This document shows positions 12,878 to 22,810 of a DNA stretch of 64,000 bases, piece after piece. The stretch covers positions 1-64,000 of the forward strand of contig CACYPF010000006.1 of NCBI GenBank assembly GCA_902776195.1. Direction: 5' to 3'. The notes under the pieces were generated by a model that was not told the origin of the DNA, made no database searches, and was given only the letters and a program-made list of their open reading frames with translations. The stretch comes from an uncultured Prevotellaceae bacterium. Its GTDB lineage: Bacteria > Bacteroidota > Bacteroidia > Bacteroidales > Bacteroidaceae. Position 1 is the first letter of the stretch. Each line of letters begins with the position of its first letter. Both the position numbers and the translations under genes were made by a program.

Positions 12878-14863
12878 CTATTTAACAGTTTCTTTTTTCA
12901 CATATTCTATACCTAACTGCTGGGCACGCTCCGCATTACGGTTACGCAGCTTCTGTTGCTCCTTGTCAGGTTTCTGTTTTGTTATCTCACCAAGCTTCTG
13001 GCGGGTGAGAGGAGTACCCTTCAAATTCCAGGGCAGGGTAACGTCAAACTTCGCCTTACACTCAATGGACTTCGGATAGTAATAAACCTCCTCAGCCTGC
13101 AGGTCTTTGTCATAGTCACCCGTATCCCATTGCCCGTTGCCGTTTCTGTCAATGAAGGCACGCATATAATAAGTGCCTGGACTGAGATAGAAGAACTCAG
13201 CAGTCCCTCCTGAGGCCTTTACCTGTTTCAGGGGTTTGTCGCTCTTGTCAAGCAACTCCACGATGACCGTCGTGTCGCTGACACCACTCAGTTGCATCAA
13301 CAAGGTGGCATAGTCGTCCAGCGAATGCACCTTGATACCTTGTTTATAAGCCACTGAGGCTTTGCCATAGATATCCACAAAGGCGGCAGAGTCTATTTCC
13401 AGACTATATTCCGTATCAGGCTGCCATTCGGCGATAAACTCATAAATGCGCAAGGTAGAATCCTTCCGGTGGAAATCGTAGGGGGTGTTATACCATAACG
13501 AGTCTATCTTCGTATATAGATGGATTGCCGATGTGTCACACCGTGCCAGGGGGGCAGGCATCTCAAACGTAGTGAGATAGTCCGGGTCCATCTGTTGTCT
13601 GACATCATATTTGACCTTGAGAGGATCCGGCGGCATGATACTGTCGTATGGCTCACCCCGTTTCTTTTGTTTCTCTTGTTTCTTCTCCCACTGCTCTATT
13701 ACCTTCTTACGATCTTTCATGCGTTTCTCATAACTCGTCTTGGAAAGGACATCAACAGTGTCCACCTGGGTTATCAGGACTCCCGACGAGTCAGTCATCA
13801 GGTAACTCAATTCCATCCGCAGGGTGTCCTGATTGACGAGCGTGGTGTCACGCAGCCAATAAGTCAGCGTGTCTTTCTTCGCACTGCTTTCCAATACGAA
13901 AGCATCCTGCTCGTTGAAGTTCAAGCCTTTGATAACAGGCAGTACAGGATTGCCATAACTGAAATAGAGTGTGAAGCGATCCGGTTCTGTACGCTCAGGC
14001 AGCTTCAGCAGGTAACGGTTTGTCTGTATTTCCTGAAAGGCGAGCAGCACGATGTCATCCGGATAGAAATGGGTGTAAGGAGTCTGGATGATATTGTCGA
14101 TATGCAGTGTGTCCTTCCAGATGGTGTCCTGCCGGATATCCGGTTTCGACGAGGGGCGGTACGTCTGGTGGGAGTAAGCTATCATCTCACTCTTCTGGTT
14201 GAAGACATAGTTGCCGTCGGCATCCTGCAAGGCAAACACACGATACTCACCCGGAGCGACACCCTTGATGACGAAGCGACCCCGTCCGTCAGTACGGGAC
14301 ACTCGCAGCAACGGCTTGGTCTTGAAAGCACTGTCACTCAGGTCATCATACAGTCCTACCATGATACCCTTCACAGGTTCTAAGTTCGAGGCATCCAGCA
14401 CATTGCCTGACACCTCGAAAGTGTCGATCTGCTCACCAGTGGAGAACGTAAAGGTGTAGTTGCCCAGCGGGTTTCCCTCATTATTATCAGTAATGGCATC
14501 ACTGAAATCTATCGTATAGGTCATGTTGGGCTTCAGGGAGTCTTTCAGTTCCACCACGATTTTCTTTCCTGCCTCCTTGATCTCCGGCATCTCCAACTGG
14601 GGAGGTGATACGATAACCTTCTCCGCGGCATTCGTCATTTTGATATACTCATCAAAAAGGATGGTGACCTTCTTCGCTGTCACACCTGTCGCTCCATCAG
14701 CAGGGGTGGAGCCAATAATGCAGGGGGGGTCGTCGTCATACCATCCACCGTCAGGTTGTCCCATTCTCGCACAGCTCGAAATGAGGAATGAGAAATGAGG
14801 AATGAGAAATGCTGCGAAGAGCATCTTCCATACCATTCCCAAGTTCAATATCCTTTTTCTCAT
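12878..14863 (-). CDS. Ig-like domain lipoprotein
   Basis: About 661 residues from the Met of MRKRILNLG; an upstream in-frame ATG at 14887 is possible. A lipoprotein signal ends in FLISSC, so the protein is lipid-anchored. Residues ~35-140 match the SbsA/Big_5 Ig-like domain that opens many Bacteroidetes lipoproteins (GSTPADGATGVTAKKVTILFDEYI .. YTIDFSDAITDNNEGN). A carboxypeptidase-regulatory-like or prealbumin-like domain follows (EPVKGIMVGLYDD .. GEYRVFALQDADGNYVF). The rest is beta-rich with a charged coiled segment near 390-420. The end is Lys/Gln-rich. The hydrophobic core of the signal peptide is encoded by a 14-base tandem repeat. Probably in an operon with DUF3108 and GH3. Confidence 0.8.
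   Translation of the reverse strand: MRKRILNLGMVWKMLFAAFLIPHFSFLISSCARMGQPDGGWYDDDPPCIIGSTPADGATGVTAKKVTILFDEYIKMTNAAEKVIVSPPQLEMPEIKEAGKKIVVELKDSLKPNMTYTIDFSDAITDNNEGNPLGNYTFTFSTGEQIDTFEVSGNVLDASNLEPVKGIMVGLYDDLSDSAFKTKPLLRVSRTDGRGRFVIKGVAPGEYRVFALQDADGNYVFNQKSEMIAYSHQTYRPSSKPDIRQDTIWKDTLHIDNIIQTPYTHFYPDDIVLLAFQEIQTNRYLLKLPERTEPDRFTLYFSYGNPVLPVIKGLNFNEQDAFVLESSAKKDTLTYWLRDTTLVNQDTLRMELSYLMTDSSGVLITQVDTVDVLSKTSYEKRMKDRKKVIEQWEKKQEKQKKRGEPYDSIMPPDPLKVKYDVRQQMDPDYLTTFEMPAPLARCDTSAIHLYTKIDSLWYNTPYDFHRKDSTLRIYEFIAEWQPDTEYSLEIDSAAFVDIYGKASVAYKQGIKVHSLDDYATLLMQLSGVSDTTVIVELLDKSDKPLKQVKASGGTAEFFYLSPGTYYMRAFIDRNGNGQWDTGDYDKDLQAEEVYYYPKSIECKAKFDVTLPWNLKGTPLTRQKLGEITKQKPDKEQQKLRNRNAERAQQLGIEYVKKETVK
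14778..14811. repeat. 14-bp tandem repeat inside a signal peptide
   Basis: 'gaaatgaggaatga' occurs twice (14778-14791, 14792-14805) plus a partial third copy. On the coding strand it reads as alternating ATTTCTC/ATTCCTC and encodes FLIPHFSFLI, the hydrophobic core before the lipobox cysteine. The unit is not a multiple of three, so the two copies are read in different frames. Confidence 0.75.
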
Positions 14864-14891: not shown

Positions 14892-16385
14892 TTATTTGAG
14901 CGAGAGTAATTGGTCTATATGCTCACGAGAGTTGCTCAGTCGGGGTACTTTATGCTGTCCTCCCAGTTTTCCTCGCAATTTCAGCCAGTCGTTAAACAGT
15001 CCTTTGCGTGCCTCTATCAGTTCCAGGGGCTGCAATGTGATATCCTTAAAGCGTTTAGCCTCATAGTCGCTGTTCACCTCCTGCAACTTCTGGTCGAGCA
15101 GACGGGCGAACTGCTGTAAGTCCTGTGGTGGCTTGGAGAACTCGATGAGCCACTGGTGACGGCATTTCGCATTGGCATCCATGAAGACAGGTGCTGCCGT
15201 ATATTCCAGCACCTCGGCACCAGTCTGCTGACAGGCATAGGCAAGTCCCTGTTCAGCATTATCCACGATCAGTTCCTCGCCAAAGGCATTGATGAAACTC
15301 TTCGTACGTCCCGTAATGACAAACTTATAGGGGTTGGTAGAGGTAAAGCGGACGGTGTCACCTATCTTATAACGCCATAGACCACATGATGTGGAAATCA
15401 GCATGGCATAGTTCTTGTCTTTCTCAACTCCCCAGAGCGGTACGATATGCCCCTCATCAGTCATGTCCTCAAACTCATAGAACACCCCATAGTCGAGCAT
15501 GAGCAGCATCGCCTTGTCAAGAGGGTCGTCCTGTAATCCGAAGAAACCCTCAGAGGCATTATAGGTCTCCATATAATGCATATTGGGTGACGTGATCAGT
15601 TGCTCATACTGTTTGCGATAAGGAGTGAAGGCGACACCACCATGGAAGAATACCTCCAGGTTAGGCCATACCTCCTCCAGATGTGTCTTCCCGGTCATCT
15701 CCATCATACAGTTCAGGACAGACAGCATCCATGAGGGTACACCAGAGATGTTCGTCACGTTCTTCGTCATTGCCTCACGGGCAATACGTTCACGTTTCAC
15801 CTCAAAGTCCTGTAACAAGGCGGTCTCCTTCTTAGGTACCCGTACAAGATTGGCAAGCGGATTGATGTTCTCAATCAAGATGGCACTAAGGTCACCCACC
15901 AAAGAGCCCGGCAGGTTATAGTTGGGAGCATGACTGCCACCCAGTATCAGGGCACGCCCGTCAAAGAGGCGTGACTTAGGGTTATTCCTCAGATAGAGTG
16001 CCACTGAGTCGAATCCTCCTGCATAGTGGATCTTCTGCAAGCCCTCGGCACTGACGGGAATAAACTTCGACTTATCGTTGGTGGTCCCGGAGGATTTGGC
16101 ATACCACTGCACACGTCCTTTCCATAACACGTTCTGCTCTCCATGGCGCATACGGTCAATCTGCTCCTTCAATTCCTCATAAGTGTTCACAGGGGTATGC
16201 TTGATGAAATCATCATAGCCCTTCATAGCATCAAAGGCATGCTGCCGACCGTATTCCGTGTCTTTTGCCGACCGCAACAAATGATTCAGCACCTGTCGCT
16301 GTAAAAGTTCTCCTTGCGTCTGGTGCTTCTCCAAGGCCCTCATACGAGGCTCGAAGATATATCTGACTAAACCTGTTATACTCAT
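14892..16385 (-). CDS. GH3 auxin-responsive promoter family protein (acyl-adenylate type)
   Basis: 497 residues from ATG 16385 (MSITGLVRYIFEPRMR). The GH3 fold is an ANL-type adenylating enzyme; plant members conjugate amino acids to hormones, and the bacterial substrate is unknown. Visible are the ATP-binding P-loop-like YAKSSGTTNDKSKFIPVS, the central YNASEGFFGLQ, the hinge region FVITGRTKSFINAFGEE and the C-terminal catalytic region after it. An in-frame extension to 16424 runs over the promoter and is rejected: the box TACCTTTG (16394-16401) sits 9 bases before ATG 16385, giving an almost leaderless mRNA. It heads the operon with the Ig-like lipoprotein and DUF3108. Confidence 0.88.
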   Translation of the reverse strand: MSITGLVRYIFEPRMRALEKHQTQGELLQRQVLNHLLRSAKDTEYGRQHAFDAMKGYDDFIKHTPVNTYEELKEQIDRMRHGEQNVLWKGRVQWYAKSSGTTNDKSKFIPVSAEGLQKIHYAGGFDSVALYLRNNPKSRLFDGRALILGGSHAPNYNLPGSLVGDLSAILIENINPLANLVRVPKKETALLQDFEVKRERIAREAMTKNVTNISGVPSWMLSVLNCMMEMTGKTHLEEVWPNLEVFFHGGVAFTPYRKQYEQLITSPNMHYMETYNASEGFFGLQDDPLDKAMLLMLDYGVFYEFEDMTDEGHIVPLWGVEKDKNYAMLISTSCGLWRYKIGDTVRFTSTNPYKFVITGRTKSFINAFGEELIVDNAEQGLAYACQQTGAEVLEYTAAPVFMDANAKCRHQWLIEFSKPPQDLQQFARLLDQKLQEVNSDYEAKRFKDITLQPLELIEARKGLFNDWLKLRGKLGGQHKVPRLSNSREHIDQLLSLK

Positions 16386-16393
16386 ACAGCGTG

Positions 16394-16425
16394 CAAAGGT
16401 AATGGAATTTGGACGAACTACCAAA
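16394..16425 (-). promoter_or_regulatory. Consensus promoter of the GH3 operon
   Basis: The minus strand has TTTG (16422-16425), 20 bases, TACCTTTG (16394-16401). The start would fall near 16387, two bases before the ATG. Confidence 0.75.
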
Positions 16426-17780: not shown

Positions 17781-19103
17781 ATGGAAAACAACAGCAATCT
17801 TTACAAGTTAGATGGTAAAGTACCTTTGATGCAGGCAATTCCATTCGGATTACAGCACGTGTTGGCAATGTTCGTTGCCAATATCACACCGATTATCATT
17901 CTGGCGAATGTCGTGGGCATTGACCCAACTGTCAGTGCCTCCCTGATACAGAACTGTATGATCATCGCTGGTATCGGTACCCTCGTCCAGCTTTATCCTA
18001 TCTGGCGTATCGGATCCCGTCTCCCCATTGTGATGGGTATCAGTTTCACATTTCTCTCCGTATCCCTTGCCATAGGTACCGCTCAGGGTATGGGTGTGCT
18101 GATGGGAGCCGTTATTATCGGCGGTATCCTCGAGGGGCTTTTGGGACTGTTTGCCAAGTACTGGATCAAACTCATCCCTCATACCGTGGCTGCTACCGTG
18201 GTGACGGCAATCGGTTTCTCCCTGCTGCCGATTGGTGCCAATTCCTTTGCTGGAGGACAAGGCGCTGCTGATTTCGGAGCAGCGCACAACTGGCTGGTAG
18301 GCACTTTCACCCTTCTTGTCTGTCTGGGTTTTCAGATCTTCGCAAAAGGGTTCCTTCGTTCCTTGTCTGTATTAATAGGATTGATAGCCGGTTATATCCT
18401 TGCCATGTGCATGGGGATGGTCGACTTCTCAGGACTAAGCAATGCGGGGGTTGTGTCACTGCCCAATATCCTACCCTTCAAACCGGAATTCGACTTAGGG
18501 GCAACGCTCTCTGTCATTGCCATCTTCCTGGTGTCTGCCACAGAGACCATCGGAGATACCAGTGCACTCTGCTCAAGTGCATTGAAGCGTACGACTCACA
18601 AGATTGAGATGGGTGCCAGCGTAGCCTGTGACGGTTTTGTGAGCAGTATCGCAGGTGTTTTCGGTTGTACGCCCATCACCTCATTCAGTCAGAATGTAGG
18701 ACTGGCAGCCATGTCGGGTGTCATCAACCGCTTTACCATCGCTACAGGAGCCGGGATAATGATTCTTGGCGGCATCTTCCCTGTTGTGGGGCATTTGCTG
18801 ACAACTATTCCGCAATCTGTCTTGGGCGGTTGTACCATTATGATGTTCGGTTCCATTATGTATGCGGGATTCCGGATGATGGCGAACTGTGGTTTCAGTG
18901 ACCGTAACATGATTATAGCAGCTCTCTCACTGAGTATAGGACTTGGGTTTACCCAGGCAACTGGTATGTTCTCTATCTTCCCGAAGATCATCCAGACCGT
19001 CTTCGCAGAAAACTGTGTGGCGGTTGTGTTCCTTTTGGCTGTCTTGCTGAATCTCATTCTGCCGAAAGACCATAAGGAGAACCCTCAAAAGATCAATGGG
19101 TGA
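17781..19103 (+). CDS. Nucleobase:cation symporter-2 (xanthine/uracil permease)
   Basis: 440 residues with about 12-14 hydrophobic segments of the NCS2/NAT family. The opening LMQAIPFGLQHVLAMFVANITPI is the family hallmark for TM1, and the substrate-binding region SATETIGDTSALCSSAL and the segment GCTPITSFSQNVGLAAMSGV are clear. Position directly behind xpt points to xanthine (PbuX-like) uptake, with uracil a less likely substrate. The last 8 bases overlap the start of the radical SAM gene, which implies coupled translation. Confidence 0.9.
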   Translation: MENNSNLYKLDGKVPLMQAIPFGLQHVLAMFVANITPIIILANVVGIDPTVSASLIQNCMIIAGIGTLVQLYPIWRIGSRLPIVMGISFTFLSVSLAIGTAQGMGVLMGAVIIGGILEGLLGLFAKYWIKLIPHTVAATVVTAIGFSLLPIGANSFAGGQGAADFGAAHNWLVGTFTLLVCLGFQIFAKGFLRSLSVLIGLIAGYILAMCMGMVDFSGLSNAGVVSLPNILPFKPEFDLGATLSVIAIFLVSATETIGDTSALCSSALKRTTHKIEMGASVACDGFVSSIAGVFGCTPITSFSQNVGLAAMSGVINRFTIATGAGIMILGGIFPVVGHLLTTIPQSVLGGCTIMMFGSIMYAGFRMMANCGFSDRNMIIAALSLSIGLGFTQATGMFSIFPKIIQTVFAENCVAVVFLLAVLLNLILPKDHKENPQKING

Positions 19104-20184
19104 ACTGACATTCCGCAAACGCATCGCTTTAGAGGCTGCAACCATCGTGAGCCGTAACATCCGTAAGGAACATCCTCTCAGACAACTGTTCTGGGAGTGT
19201 ACCTTGCGGTGTAATGTGAGTTGTCGCCATTGCGGTAGTGATTGCCGGAAACTCTCCGAGGTCAAGGACATGCCCCGGGAGGATTTCTTCCGTGTCCTTG
19301 ACAGTATAGCCCGGAAGACAGACCCCCATCAAGTGTTTGTGACGATAACGGGTGGTGAGCCGTTGCTGAGAGAAGACCTGGAACTTTGTGGAAAGGAAAT
19401 TTATGAGCGGGGCCTCCCATGGGGCATCGTGACGAACGGTCTGGCATTGACTCCTGACCGTTTTGAATCCTTACGAAAGGCGGGGATGCACAGCATCACC
19501 GTCAGCATGGACGGTCTGGAGGAAAATCATAACTGGATGCGTCGCCATCCTCAGAGTTTCCAGATGGTAGACCACGTTCTCGACCTCTTTGTACAGCACC
19601 CACAGATAGCATCTGATGTTGTCACTTGTGTCAACCAGCGTAATTATGACCAGCTCCCTGCGATTCGTGACTACCTGATCCGCAAAGGGATAGGCTATTG
19701 GCGTATTTACTCCATTTTTCCTGTTGGGCGTGCTGCCAACGACCCAATGATGCAGTTAAGCAACGAACAGTATCGGAGTATGCTTGATTTTATCCGTCAG
19801 ACCCGTCAAGAGGGACTCATCGATGCCTCCTATGGATGCGAGGGATTCCTCGGACGCTATGAAGGAGAAGTCCGCGACCTGTTCTTCAACTGTCAGGCTG
19901 GCGTGACGGTAGGTTCTGTGATGGCAGACGGCTCCATCGCCGCTTGTGCCAGTATCCGTGCCGACTACCACCAAGGGAATATCTATCAAGACGATTTCAT
20001 GGAGGTATGGGAGAACCGCTACCAACCCTACCATCAGCGTGAATGGATGCGTCAGGGAGAATGCAAGGATTGCCGCTATTGGCGTTACTGTCGGGGGAAC
20101 GGTATGCATCTCCGTGACGGGAAAGGTCAGCTCATCCTCTGCCATCTGAAACGTATCCAGGAGGCAAGTCATATTGTTAAATAA
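19096..20184 (+). CDS. Radical SAM/SPASM enzyme of the rSAM/lipoprotein type
   Basis: 362 residues. The radical SAM core carries CNVSCRHC (CX3CX2C) near residue 39, ITGGEPLLRED, and SMDGLEENHNWMRRHPQSF. The C-terminal SPASM part has cysteines for auxiliary Fe-S clusters: NCQAGVTVGSV, IAACASIRADYHQGNI, and ECKDCRYWRYCRG with a last C in LILCHL. This matches the Bacteroidetes family I know as TIGR04133, 'radical SAM enzyme, rSAM/lipoprotein system', which sits beside a small lipoprotein gene; here such a gene starts 69 bases downstream. The substrate is unknown. Its start overlaps the permease by 8 bases, tying its translation to purine salvage. Confidence 0.85.
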   Translation: MGELTFRKRIALEAATIVSRNIRKEHPLRQLFWECTLRCNVSCRHCGSDCRKLSEVKDMPREDFFRVLDSIARKTDPHQVFVTITGGEPLLREDLELCGKEIYERGLPWGIVTNGLALTPDRFESLRKAGMHSITVSMDGLEENHNWMRRHPQSFQMVDHVLDLFVQHPQIASDVVTCVNQRNYDQLPAIRDYLIRKGIGYWRIYSIFPVGRAANDPMMQLSNEQYRSMLDFIRQTRQEGLIDASYGCEGFLGRYEGEVRDLFFNCQAGVTVGSVMADGSIAACASIRADYHQGNIYQDDFMEVWENRYQPYHQREWMRQGECKDCRYWRYCRGNGMHLRDGKGQLILCHLKRIQEASHIVK

Positions 20185-20217
20185 TCTTTATTTAAGTACT
20201 TATTCAATTATAATCCA

Positions 20218-20225
20218 TAATTTTG
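20218..20225 (+). promoter_or_regulatory. -7 box of the small lipoprotein gene
   Basis: TAATTTTG matches TAnnTTTG; no TTTG is seen at the -33 distance. It lets the lipoprotein be made independently of the radical SAM gene upstream. Confidence 0.5.
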
Positions 20226-20252
20226 CACCCGAAATCATCAAACGTTTGAGTT

Positions 20253-20528
20253 ATGAAGAGAATTCGTAAGTCCATTAACCTTGTGCTCTCCGCCATTATC
20301 GTGGCTTTGGGCTTTGGTTCTTGTGTGAGCCAACAGAAATACCGGGCTGCACAGGAGGAAATCAAACAATTGCATGAGCAAAACGGAAGACTAAGCGCTG
20401 ATAATGATGCATTGCTTCGAGAGAATGCTGATTTGCGGAAAGCGTTGAAGATCCGGAATAAGATGGAACAGCCCAAGGTGGTTTATGGTCCCCGACCTAC
20501 GAATTATAAGGAGAACATCAATAGATAG
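20253..20528 (+). CDS. Small lipoprotein, likely partner of the radical SAM enzyme
   Basis: 91 residues. A signal peptide MKRIRKSINLVLSAIIVALG ends in the lipobox LGFGSC. Residues ~28-70 form a short coiled coil with regular Leu spacing (IKQLHEQNGRLSADNDALL), and the tail is VVYGPRPTNYKENINR. The position just after the TIGR04133-like gene, the LGF-x-SC signal and the tail's Tyr-Gly-x-x-Pro resemble the lipoprotein partner of rSAM/lipoprotein systems, though known partners are often longer and read MYG-x-P-Y. I infer that the tail is the modification target; nothing in the sequence proves it. The FKBP gene begins 29 bases later. Confidence 0.7.
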   Translation: MKRIRKSINLVLSAIIVALGFGSCVSQQKYRAAQEEIKQLHEQNGRLSADNDALLRENADLRKALKIRNKMEQPKVVYGPRPTNYKENINR

Positions 20529-20557: not shown

Positions 20558-21163
20558 ATGGATAAAGTAAGTTATGCTCTGGGCTTAGGCATTGGACGCC
20601 AATTGGCTCAGATGGGTGCTACCGAGTTGAATATCGATGATTTTGCCACAGCTATCAAGGATGTGATTGCCGGCAACGACCTGAAGGTATCCAACCGTGA
20701 GGCACAACAGATTGTACAGGAGTATTTCGCTGCCCAAGAGGAGAAAATCAATAAGCAGCGTAGCGAACAAGGTAAGGTACATAAGGAGGCTGGTGAGAAA
20801 TATCTTGCGGAGAATGCCAAGAAGGACGGGGTGATTACCCTGCCCAGCGGACTGCAGTATCAGGTATTGAAAGAAGGTAATGGTAAGAAACCAACCGCCA
20901 AGGATAGTGTGAAATGCCACTATGAGGGTTTCCTCATCGATGGTACCGTGTTTGACAGCAGTGTAGAGCGTGGTGAGCCTGCCGTCTTCGGACTGCAGCA
21001 GGTGATTGCCGGCTGGACAGAAGGCTTACAGCTGATGCAGGAGGGTGCTAAGTACCGTTTCTTCATCCCCTATCGTCTTGCCTATGGAGAGGGCGGTGCC
21101 GGTGCTTCCATTCCTCCCTTTGCAGCTCTTATCTTCGATGTGGAGTTGCTCCAAGTGATGTAA
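20558..21163 (+). CDS. FKBP-type peptidyl-prolyl isomerase, no signal peptide
   Basis: 201 residues of the FklB/Mip-like type. The N-terminal ~85 residues are the helical FKBP_N dimerisation domain (VSYALGLGIGRQLAQMG). Residues ~95-201 are the FKBP fold (LPSGLQYQVLKEGNGKKP, FDSSVERGEPAVFGLQQVI, GWTEGLQLMQEGAKYRFFIPYRLAYGEGG). It catalyses proline cis/trans isomerisation. It lacks a signal peptide, so it is cytoplasmic, unlike the next two copies. First of three tandem FKBP genes. Confidence 0.9.
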   Translation: MDKVSYALGLGIGRQLAQMGATELNIDDFATAIKDVIAGNDLKVSNREAQQIVQEYFAAQEEKINKQRSEQGKVHKEAGEKYLAENAKKDGVITLPSGLQYQVLKEGNGKKPTAKDSVKCHYEGFLIDGTVFDSSVERGEPAVFGLQQVIAGWTEGLQLMQEGAKYRFFIPYRLAYGEGGAGASIPPFAALIFDVELLQVM

Positions 21164-21196
21164 TTATCGAAATATCGAAATAATAAAAAAGAAAAA

Positions 21197-22081
21197 ATGA
21201 GAAAGTTTACTTTTGCTGCTATTGCAGCAGTAGCCGCAGCAACGATGTTCTCCTGTGGCAACGGCACTCCGAAGGCAAACCTGAAGAGTGATGTCGATAC
21301 CTTTAGCTATGCTATCGGTATGGCACAGACTAACGGTCTGAAAGATTATCTGGTTAATCGTCTGGACATTGACACCGCCTATATGGACGAGTTCATCAAA
21401 GGTCTCAACGAAGGTGCTAACGCTGGTGATGACAAGAAGAAGGCTGCTTATTATGCCGGTATCCAGATTGGTCAGCAGATCAGCAACCAGATGGTAAAGG
21501 GTATCAACCACGAGTTGTTCGGAAACGACTCCACACAGACTATCTCCCTGAAGAACTTCATGGCTGGCTTCATCAGTGGTACTACTGGTAAAGGCGGTCT
21601 GATGACTGTTGACTCAGCCCAGATAGTTACCCAGGCTCTGATGCAGTCTATCAAGAGCAGATATATGGAGAAAGAGTTTGGTCCTAACAAGGTGGCTGGT
21701 GAGAAATTCCTCGCTGAGAATGCCAAGAAAGAGGGTGTGAAGACCCTTGAGGGCGGTGTACAGTATAAGGTCATCAAGGAGGGCAGTGGTGCCATTCCTT
21801 CTGACACCTCTCGCGTAAAGGTCAACTATGAGGGACGTACTCTCGACGGTAAAGTATTTGACAGTACCTACAAGCGTGGTGAGCCAGCAGAGTTCCGTTG
21901 CAACCAAGTAATCAAGGGCTGGACTGAGGCACTCGTCCACATGCCTGCCGGTTCTGTCTGGGAAGTTTACGTACCACAGGAGAAGGCATATGGTGCTCGT
22001 CAGCAAGGTGCTGACATCAAGCCATTCTCTATGCTTATCTTCAAGATTGAGCTGCTGGAAGTTGATCCTAAGCGTAAGTAA
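21197..22081 (+). CDS. FKBP-type peptidyl-prolyl isomerase lipoprotein
   Basis: 294 residues. The lipoprotein signal ends at TMFSC (about residue 18). An FKBP_N helical domain with a duplicated-looking DTFSYAIGMAQTNGL start follows, and residues ~190-290 are the isomerase domain (GVQYKVIKEGSG, FDSTYKRGEPAEFRCNQVIKGW, KAYGARQQG). It is lipid-anchored, probably periplasm-facing. The 3-base gap to the next gene shows close coupling, and its C-terminal half is very similar to that gene's, indicating recent duplication. Confidence 0.9.
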   Translation: MRKFTFAAIAAVAAATMFSCGNGTPKANLKSDVDTFSYAIGMAQTNGLKDYLVNRLDIDTAYMDEFIKGLNEGANAGDDKKKAAYYAGIQIGQQISNQMVKGINHELFGNDSTQTISLKNFMAGFISGTTGKGGLMTVDSAQIVTQALMQSIKSRYMEKEFGPNKVAGEKFLAENAKKEGVKTLEGGVQYKVIKEGSGAIPSDTSRVKVNYEGRTLDGKVFDSTYKRGEPAEFRCNQVIKGWTEALVHMPAGSVWEVYVPQEKAYGARQQGADIKPFSMLIFKIELLEVDPKRK

Positions 22082-22084
22082 CCA

Positions 22085-22810
22085 ATGAGAATCAGAAACT
22101 TTATGGTAGCACTCGCCCTCATAGCGGGTGCTACTTTCACTTCCGCACAGGCACAGCAGTTACAAACACGTATGGACTCGCTGAGCTATGCTTTCGGCAT
22201 GGTGCAGTCACAGGGCTTGTCCCGCTTCCTGCAGCAGTTCCACCAAGAGATGTTCAGCAACGATTCCACTCAGCGCCTGAATATGGATCTCTTCATGAAA
22301 GCCTTTAACAGCGGGATGAAGGGTGAGACTGGTCTTATTTCTACTGACGAGGCTAACAAGGTTGCTTCTACTATCATCAAAGCTTTACAAGACGAGAAAG
22401 CCATGAAACTCTACGGAGACATCAAGGTCGCTGGTGAGAAATTCCTCGCTGAGAACGCCAAGAAACAGGATGTCAAAGTGCTGGAGAGTGGTGTACAGTA
22501 TAAGATCTTGAAGGCTGGAACAGGACCAGTTCCGACTGCTTCCCAGAAAGTGAAGGTCCATTATGAGGGACGAACACTCGACGGTAACGTCTTCGACAGT
22601 TCTTACAAAAGAGGTGAGCCAACAGACTTCCGCTGTAACCAAGTTATCAAGGGCTGGACGGAAGCACTTACCCACATGCCTGTAGGTTCTACGTGGGAAG
22701 TATATATCCCATACCATTTAGCTTATGGGGAAAGGGGTGCTGGCGATGATATCAAACCCTTCTCCATGCTCATCTTCAAGATAGAGCTTTTGGAGATTAT
22801 CGAGAAATAA
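22085..22810 (+). CDS. FKBP-type peptidyl-prolyl isomerase, periplasmic
   Basis: 241 residues. Signal peptide MRIRNFMVALALIAGATFTSAQA has no lipobox cysteine, so the protein is soluble and exported. It has a shortened FKBP_N part, then the isomerase domain (GVQYKILKAGTG, FDSSYKRGEPTDFRCNQVIKGW, LAYGERGAG). It is nearly parallel to the lipoprotein copy upstream. A strong terminator follows at 22819-22845. Confidence 0.9.
   Translation: MRIRNFMVALALIAGATFTSAQAQQLQTRMDSLSYAFGMVQSQGLSRFLQQFHQEMFSNDSTQRLNMDLFMKAFNSGMKGETGLISTDEANKVASTIIKALQDEKAMKLYGDIKVAGEKFLAENAKKQDVKVLESGVQYKILKAGTGPVPTASQKVKVHYEGRTLDGNVFDSSYKRGEPTDFRCNQVIKGWTEALTHMPVGSTWEVYIPYHLAYGERGAGDDIKPFSMLIFKIELLEIIEK

What the first reader, a model, noticed from the sequence alone, without database searches (positions are those of the whole stretch)
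19096..20528. Radical SAM/SPASM enzyme beside a short coiled-coil lipoprotein with a YGPRP tail
The enzyme has CX3CX2C and a full SPASM cysteine set and resembles TIGR04133. The next gene is a 91-residue lipoprotein with lipobox LGFGSC and tail VVYGPRPTNYKENINR. Partners I remember from rSAM/lipoprotein systems carry an MYG-x-P-Y motif, so this shorter coiled-coil version may be a distinct substrate. What the enzyme does to a lipoprotein is, as far as I know, not settled.
Basis: partly seen in the sequence, partly recalled or inferred. Interest (0 to 1): 0.75.

Follow-up and report, generated by a model that had tools for sequence, protein, structure and literature searches.

The report
Radical enzyme with tagged lipoproteins
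A Bacteroidota genome pairs a radical-chemistry enzyme with a small lipoprotein that ends in a short tyrosine-glycine-proline tag; related genomes carry a like tag on many otherwise unlike lipoproteins, and tag and enzyme resemble a known system that cuts part of a tyrosine out of the protein backbone.

Summary
Window 19096-20184 is a TIGR04133 radical SAM/SPASM protein (571.8 bits, cut-off 425); 20253-20528 is a 91-aa coiled-coil lipoprotein ending VVYGPRPTNYKENINR, with no TIGR04134 hit. The SPASM set is not full: residue 336 is never Cys in 97 TIGR04133 enzymes, but Cys in 10 of 10 PlpX-like ones.

The genome has a second pair, with an unlike lipoprotein carrying CYGPAPRNY. Of 97 distinct TIGR04133 loci, 90 have a nearby tagged carrier: 107 ORFs in 26 BLAST groups, 49 of them TIGR04134 hits. 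The tag is X-Y-G, then Pro, usually an aromatic at +7. So the enzyme probably reads a portable tag, not one lipoprotein family.

The tag resembles the XYG site of PlpX-type spliceases, which excise tyramine. A TIGR04103-annotated Nostoc enzyme sits beside a precursor ending LYGLPPELF, and that clade scores best against a TIGR04133 profile (tree support modest). Best explanation: a stand-alone splicease-like enzyme acting on envelope lipoproteins. The chemistry is untested, and the key mining paper (Scott 2022) could not be read.

The parts
19096..20184 (+). TIGR04133 radical SAM/SPASM enzyme, 362 aa; its start overlaps the end of the xanthine permease gene by 8 bases
   Evidence: AlphaFold2 model mean pLDDT 92.4, SPASM-enzyme fold
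19210..19233 (+). CX3CX2C radical SAM cluster motif (C39, C43, C46), Cys in 97 of 97 TIGR04133 rows
19891..20142 (+). SPASM region C266 to C349; the usual Cys at residue 336 is Gly here
20218..20225 (+). TAATTTTG, like the Bacteroidota -7 promoter box (consensus TAnnTTTG recalled); TAnnTTTG lies 33-37 nt before the lipoprotein start in 12 of 15 window-type loci
20253..20528 (+). 91-aa coiled-coil lipoprotein, proposed substrate (carrier)
20307..20324 (+). lipobox LGFGSC
20481..20507 (+). tag V-Y-G-P-R-P-T-N-Y, proposed modification site V77-Y78-G79

Best explanation
The TIGR04133 enzyme is a stand-alone radical SAM/SPASM protein modifier that recognises a portable tag, X-Y-G-x-P (or x-x-P) with an aromatic usually at +7 from the Tyr, on membrane-anchored carriers. 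[quoted passage not shown] The lipoprotein is then lipidated and shows an electrophilic ketoamide in its C-terminal tail. What that group is for (capturing a protease, attaching the lipoprotein to something) is a guess. Shown here: the pairing, the tag on otherwise unlike carriers, the likeness of enzyme and tag to the splicease family. Inferred: that the tag is the modified site, and the tyramine excision itself.
For: (1) 88 of 97 loci have a same-strand ORF of up to 260 aa with YG.{1,2}P within 1.5 kb, against 3-33 for nine control motifs; with a lipobox-like Cys 84 of 97 against 0-7. Of 400 dipeptides followed by Pro in lipobox-like ORFs YG ranks first (84; next GP and EY, 34 each, parts of the same tag). 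(2) 107 curated carriers in 90 of 97 loci fall into 26 BLAST groups once the first 24 residues are removed; 49 of 107 hit TIGR04134 at E <= 0.001, 58 do not. (3) L155 has five small lipoproteins flanking one enzyme, four before and one after, each with a tag. (4) The two pairs of the window's genome carry YGPRPTNY and YGPAPRNY on lipoproteins of different BLAST groups. (5) PlpXY excises tyramine at XYG, acts naturally on MYG and LYG sites, needs no leader, and works with a ten-residue splice tag (PMC10533398, passages). (6) Nostoc L185: an enzyme annotated as TIGR04103-type follows a Nif11 precursor ending ALYGLPPELF, the same Y-G-x-P-x-x-x-F spacing. L134, a TIGR04103-like enzyme from the window's family, sits beside a protein with six KYGYP repeats. 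(7) A profile built here from 97 TIGR04133 enzymes scores 14 PlpX/GDL-type enzymes at 134-183 bits, 8 AhbD-like at 82-118 and 4 others at 58-67.
Against: No chemistry was tested. The window enzyme is far below the TIGR04103 cut-off (109 of 725 bits) and scores NirJ2 (114.5) and TIGR04053 (112.5) slightly higher. It lacks a SPASM Cys that 10 of 10 PlpX-like rows have, and none of its annotated neighbours looks like PlpY (no RRE model was run). The branch joining TIGR04133 with the PlpX/GDL group has support 93/82 in one tree, 81/64 in the next. The 10 PlpX-like enzymes are themselves below the TIGR04103 cut-off (177-417 of 725 bits), and for 7 of 10 no neighbouring XYG-x-P protein was found. 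Of the 8 DUF1843 peptides read in the GDL branch none has Pro at +3 and 3 have YA or YM instead of YG. 7 of 97 TIGR04133 loci have no carrier nearby. Carriers were picked by the tag, so the fixed Y and G and the presence of Pro are by construction. With bare dipeptides the contrast is weaker: lipobox-like ORFs with YG 88, FG 53, GY 39, YS 38 of 97. For PlpXY itself the tag is not free of context: 2 of 16 tag constructs listed for FtsZ were accepted (PMC10533398).
Confidence: 0.5

Rival explanations
1. The enzyme acts on the same tag with different radical SAM chemistry: an aromatic cross-link (for example between the Tyr and a Pro or the aromatic at +7), epimerisation, or a thioether to the Cys in CYG carriers.
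Against: The X-Y-G-x-P core coincides with known splicease sites, and an aromatic at +7 is also present in the Nostoc precursor.
Confidence: 0.35
2. The tag is a docking, sorting or processing signal, and the enzyme modifies another residue or another molecule.
For: In some carriers the tag starts at the lipobox Cys itself (CYGPAPRNY, CYGMPENYY), where lipoprotein sorting signals lie (general knowledge).
Against: In other carriers the tag is at the far C-terminus, so no single sorting position fits. The window-type profile hits in 150 genus genomes, 12 of 12, lie in the 37 enzyme-positive genomes; 11 of the 12 carry the tag.
Confidence: 0.1
3. The lipoprotein is a chance neighbour of an enzyme with an unrelated role.
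For: 7 of 97 loci have no carrier. The window enzyme overlaps the xanthine permease gene, so its upstream context is metabolic.
Against: 90 of 97 loci have a tagged carrier, with low counts for control motifs.
Confidence: 0.03

Closest known systems
TIGR04133 / TIGR04134 rSAM-lipoprotein pair (NCBIfam)
   Same: The enzyme is a TIGR04133 member over cut-off; TIGR04134-type carriers show the same kind of tag next to the same kind of enzyme.
   Different: The window's lipoprotein is no TIGR04134 hit: a short coiled coil with the tag at the C-terminus. TIGR04134 is hit by 49 of 107 carriers.
PlpX/PlpY splicease and spliceotides (IPR026482 per a passage of PMC11002830; TIGR04103 by recall)
   Same: Radical SAM/SPASM enzyme; X-Y-G site, in PlpA tags X-Y-G-L-P; short tag usable without leader; the clade that scores best against the TIGR04133 profile.
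   Different: Well under the TIGR04103 cut-off; no PlpY-like neighbour recognised; one SPASM Cys missing; carriers are mostly lipoproteins, not Nif11-type precursors.
GDL-motif peptide maturase (TIGR03913) with DUF1843 peptides
   Same: Groups with the Nostoc TIGR04103-type enzyme; 5 of 8 DUF1843 peptides read have LYG or PYG near the N-terminus.
   Different: Small peptides without lipobox, no Pro at +3, 3 of 8 with YA or YM.

Membership tests
TIGR04133 radical SAM/SPASM protein | NCBIfam model score over 425 bits, full length | tested here: met
   571.8 bits, profile 1-350 of 350
TIGR04134 radical SAM-associated putative lipoprotein | NCBIfam model score over 39.8 bits | tested here: not met
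   No hit of the 91-aa lipoprotein at E <= 0.001; the genome search found only a 25.1-bit partial hit to another window protein
TIGR04103 / PlpX splicease | NCBIfam TIGR04103 score over 725 bits | tested here: not met
   109 bits
TIGR04103 / PlpX splicease | X-Y-G site in the adjacent substrate | tested here: met
   V-Y-G-P-R-P in the window lipoprotein; tagged carriers at 90 of 97 loci
TIGR04103 / PlpX splicease | PlpY-like RRE partner encoded with the enzyme | tested here: inconclusive
   Neighbours are xanthine phosphoribosyltransferase, xanthine permease, the lipoprotein and FKBP isomerases; no RRE model was run and a partner elsewhere was not sought
TIGR04103 / PlpX splicease | Seven-Cys SPASM pattern (pattern recalled) | tested here: not met
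   Residue 336 is Gly; Cys in 10 of 10 PlpX-like rows
TIGR04103 / PlpX splicease | Excision of tyramine, loss of C8H9NO | not testable with these tools
   Needs mass spectrometry
TIGR04103 / PlpX splicease | Common clade with a TIGR04103 enzyme | tested here: inconclusive
   Branch support 93/82 (without the Nostoc enzyme) and 81/64 (with it); profile scores agree

The most novel reading that the evidence does not exclude
TIGR04133 enzymes are leader-free, partner-free spliceases that write alpha-keto-beta-amino residues into envelope lipoproteins of Bacteroidota (and of a Treponema), and the eight-or-so-residue tag has been acquired by many unrelated carriers: coiled coils, CarboxypepD_reg-like lipoproteins, TonB_C lipoproteins and short tails, some encoded away from the enzyme. 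Ribosomal beta-residues would then be a normal part of these cell envelopes.
Probability: 0.4. Interest if true: 0.85.

Novelty: new variant of a known kind. Interest (0 to 1): 0.62.

Why it matters
It turns an orphan enzyme/lipoprotein pair into a specific, cheap test: a 135-Da loss at Y78 of the lipoprotein. It predicts a class of modified envelope proteins in Bacteroidota, and would give a leader-independent tag system from anaerobes. If the chemistry is another, the tag still points to the substrates of this maturase family.

Tried and rejected
TIGR04134 membership of the window lipoprotein: no hit. The only TIGR04134 signal found in the genome is a partial hit to a Big_5 domain protein at 14156-14422 (-), 25.1 of 39.8 bits, taken as chance. 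FtsL/DivIC-like hits of the lipoprotein are below cut-off and fall on the coiled coil. The second enzyme is no copy of the first: another contig, 62% identical. Phage spread: a scan of viral contigs gave 7 relatives at 19-29% identity, not examined further. Cys distances in the model could not be measured, as no coordinates are laid out. No complex of enzyme and tag was modelled. PlpX itself was not obtained; a Nostoc enzyme annotated as nif11-class maturase 3 stands in for it. My note says 27 carrier groups and 21 singletons; the output gives 26 and 20.

Rows dropped before counts: of 102 loci, 2 without a full enzyme ORF (L085, L116) and 3 duplicates, leaving 97. From the ORF list (114 ORFs in 92 loci) 7 were dropped by hand as spurious (L081 220 aa, L089 225 aa, L091 two, L105 209 aa, L113 51 aa, L158 200 aa); 6 without a hydrophobic segment had been set aside, and ORFs under 40 or over 350 aa were not taken. 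Of the 12 genus genomes hit by the window-type profile, G534 (L199, OmpA-like, no tag of the YG.{1,2}P-x-aromatic kind in a lipoprotein tail) is counted apart.

Full report
What is there. The enzyme ORF (19096-20184, +) is a TIGR04133 member: 571.8 bits against a cut-off of 425, full length. Pfam sees Radical_SAM and SPASM. The second ORF (20253-20528, +) is a 91-aa lipoprotein with LGFGSC and the tail VVYGPRPTNYKENINR, without a TIGR04134 match. The enzyme start overlaps the end of the xanthine permease gene; xanthine phosphoribosyltransferase lies before that, and three FKBP isomerases follow the lipoprotein. A TAnnTTTG box, like the Bacteroidota -7 promoter element (recalled), lies 33-37 nt before the lipoprotein start in 12 of 15 window-type loci, so the lipoprotein is probably also transcribed on its own.

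A second pair in the same genome. Contig C19 of G000 has another TIGR04133 enzyme (587 bits). Just upstream is a 79-aa ORF with LIFMACYGPAPRNYQVVED. The two lipoproteins are in different BLAST groups but share YGPxPxNY.

Carrier survey. They are mostly Prevotellaceae and close kin. 88 of 97 have a same-strand ORF of up to 260 aa within 1.5 kb with YG.{1,2}P, against 18 of 97 on the other strand and 3-33 of 97 for nine control motifs. With a lipobox-like Cys it is 84 of 97, against 0-7 for the nine controls on the same strand and 7 for YG on the other strand. Bare dipeptides separate less: 88 for YG, 53 for FG, 39 for GY, 38 for YS. In a ranking of all 400 dipeptides followed by Pro, YG is first with 84, then GP and EY with 34. 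In the 20 loci outside the three largest carrier groups the signal is weak, 9 of 20 against 7 for the next dipeptide; 7 of these 20 have no carrier. After hand curation there are 107 carriers in 90 of 97 loci. The seven without are L043, L070, L082, L091, L099, L105 and L115.

The tag. There are 134 instances, picked by Y, G and a Pro at +3 to +5 from the Tyr, so these are by construction. X is E 42, V 30, L 23, M 20, C 11; +2 is P 51, T 28, V 20; +3 is P 96; +7 is Y 76 or F 24. Pro at +3 together with an aromatic at +7 occurs in 72 of 134; 89 of 107 carriers have at least one tag with the aromatic at +7. With the first 24 residues removed, BLASTP (E < 1e-5, at least 25 aa) gives 26 groups: 47, 25 (the window's), 7 (CYGP type), 3, 3, 2 and 20 singletons. 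Some singletons may be distant kin. 49 of 107 hit TIGR04134 at E <= 0.001; 30 of 107 hit CarboxypepD_reg, 16 DivIC (a coiled-coil signal) and 1 TonB_C. Another TonB_C carrier, outside the 107, is L197. 10 of 90 loci have carriers of more than one group. L155 has five small lipoproteins around one enzyme. At least two carriers have a membrane segment but no lipobox by my test (L069, L158). A Treponema saccharophilum plasmid has a pair with SCYGMPENYYSIKG; Parabacteroides and Phocaeicola plasmid records have CEYGSPHANF and CEYGTPSADY.

Co-occurrence. In 150 genomes of the genus the window-type lipoprotein profile hits 12 at E <= 1e-6; a search drawn in the same way finds a TIGR04133 enzyme (E <= 1e-90) in 37 of 150 (taken to be the same 150). 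The 12 are all among the 37 (Fisher p = 1.1e-8); without G534, whose hit is OmpA-like, it is 11 (p = 5.7e-8). Relatedness is not corrected for. Some of the 11 are other carrier types than the window's (L195-L198, L200, L201). In G559 the carrier is on C46 and the only enzyme found on C16; in G503 they are also on different contigs, there with the enzyme cut by a contig end. This suggests action in trans. Phylum-wide the enzyme is sparse: 3 of 395 genomes, the window's own included.

Link to spliceases. PlpXY excises tyramine at X-Y-G, acts naturally on MYG and LYG, needs no leader and works with a ten-residue splice tag; tags used contain PIRP[L/G]YGLPI, though 2 of 16 tag constructs listed for FtsZ were accepted (PMC10533398, passages). 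Two further papers tell the same reaction (PMC11002830, passages; PMC10373908, passages and section 10). That IPR026482, named for PlpX in PMC11002830, corresponds to TIGR04103 is recalled. In Nostoc sp. C057 a gene annotated as nif11-class maturase 3 follows a Nif11 precursor that ends ALYGLPPELF and precedes a 71-aa protein without Pfam hit, a candidate for a PlpY counterpart: the same Y-G-x-P-x-x-x-F spacing. A TIGR04103-like enzyme from the window's family (L134, 218 bits) sits beside a protein with six KYGYP repeats. A profile built from the 97 TIGR04133 enzymes scores 14 PlpX/GDL-type enzymes (10 TIGR04103-like, none over cut-off, plus Nostoc, Azospirillum, Aureibacter, Agathobacter) at 134-183 bits, 8 AhbD-like (none over cut-off) at 82-118, and 4 other weak radical SAM hits at 58-67 (first run). 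Trees join TIGR04133 with that group at 93/82 and 81/64, so not firmly. From the other side, two of the three PlpX-like enzymes scanned (L130, L132) have TIGR04133 as best family after TIGR04103 and TIGR03913; for L134 AhbD comes before it.

Against. The window enzyme alone scores NirJ2 (114.5) and TIGR04053 (112.5) a little above TIGR04103 (109.0). 7 of the 10 PlpX-like loci (L131, L133, L135-L139) show no neighbouring XYG-x-P ORF; L132 has LYGTPP, but the neighbour in L131 at the same place lacks YG. Of 8 DUF1843 peptides read in the GDL branch none has Pro at +3, and 3 have YA or YM. One SPASM Cys differs. The enzyme has no PlpY-like neighbour that I recognised.

How it may work. The enzyme ORF begins without an obvious signal sequence (by eye), so modification should precede export and lipidation (general knowledge). 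In the window carrier the Tyr is 14th from the C-terminus, beyond the coiled coil; in CYG carriers X is the Cys of the lipobox. A review and a research paper describe spliceotide products as protease inhibitors (PMC10373908, section 10; PMC11117315, passage), so a membrane-tethered ketoamide that captures a protease is one possible use (guess, about 0.2).

Prior art. No paper in the held library contains TIGR04133, TIGR04134, rSAM_w_lipo or lipo_with_rSAM, or the phrase 'radical SAM-associated putative lipoprotein'. Scott et al. 2022, with 939 predicted splicease systems according to PMC10533398, is not held and may already cover these; I could not check.

Verdict. Ordinary as a family assignment, but the portable tag on many carriers and its likeness to splicease sites make an orphan system directly testable.

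Noticed in passing
window 20558-22810 (+): Three consecutive FKBP-type isomerases; each exceeds the NCBIfam BamJ cut-off (106.7, 114.8, 118.3 against 100).
   Followed up: no
window 14892-16424 (-): GH3-family (auxin-amido-synthetase-like) protein with three GH3 Pfam domains.
   Followed up: no
window 20218-20225: Conserved TAATTTTGCAC promoter-like box between enzyme and lipoprotein; 12 of 15 window-type loci have TAnnTTTG.
   Followed up: partly
L197 1495-2097, L101 5062-5742: Lipoproteins that combine two YG-x-P tags with a C-terminal TonB_C domain.
   Followed up: partly
L134 5415-6059: 214-aa protein with six KYGYP repeats beside a TIGR04103-like enzyme from the window's family; no Pfam or NCBIfam hit.
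   Followed up: partly
L186 (Treponema saccharophilum plasmid pTS1): TIGR04133 enzyme and CYG lipoprotein outside Bacteroidota, near a Mpi-type invertase.
   Followed up: no
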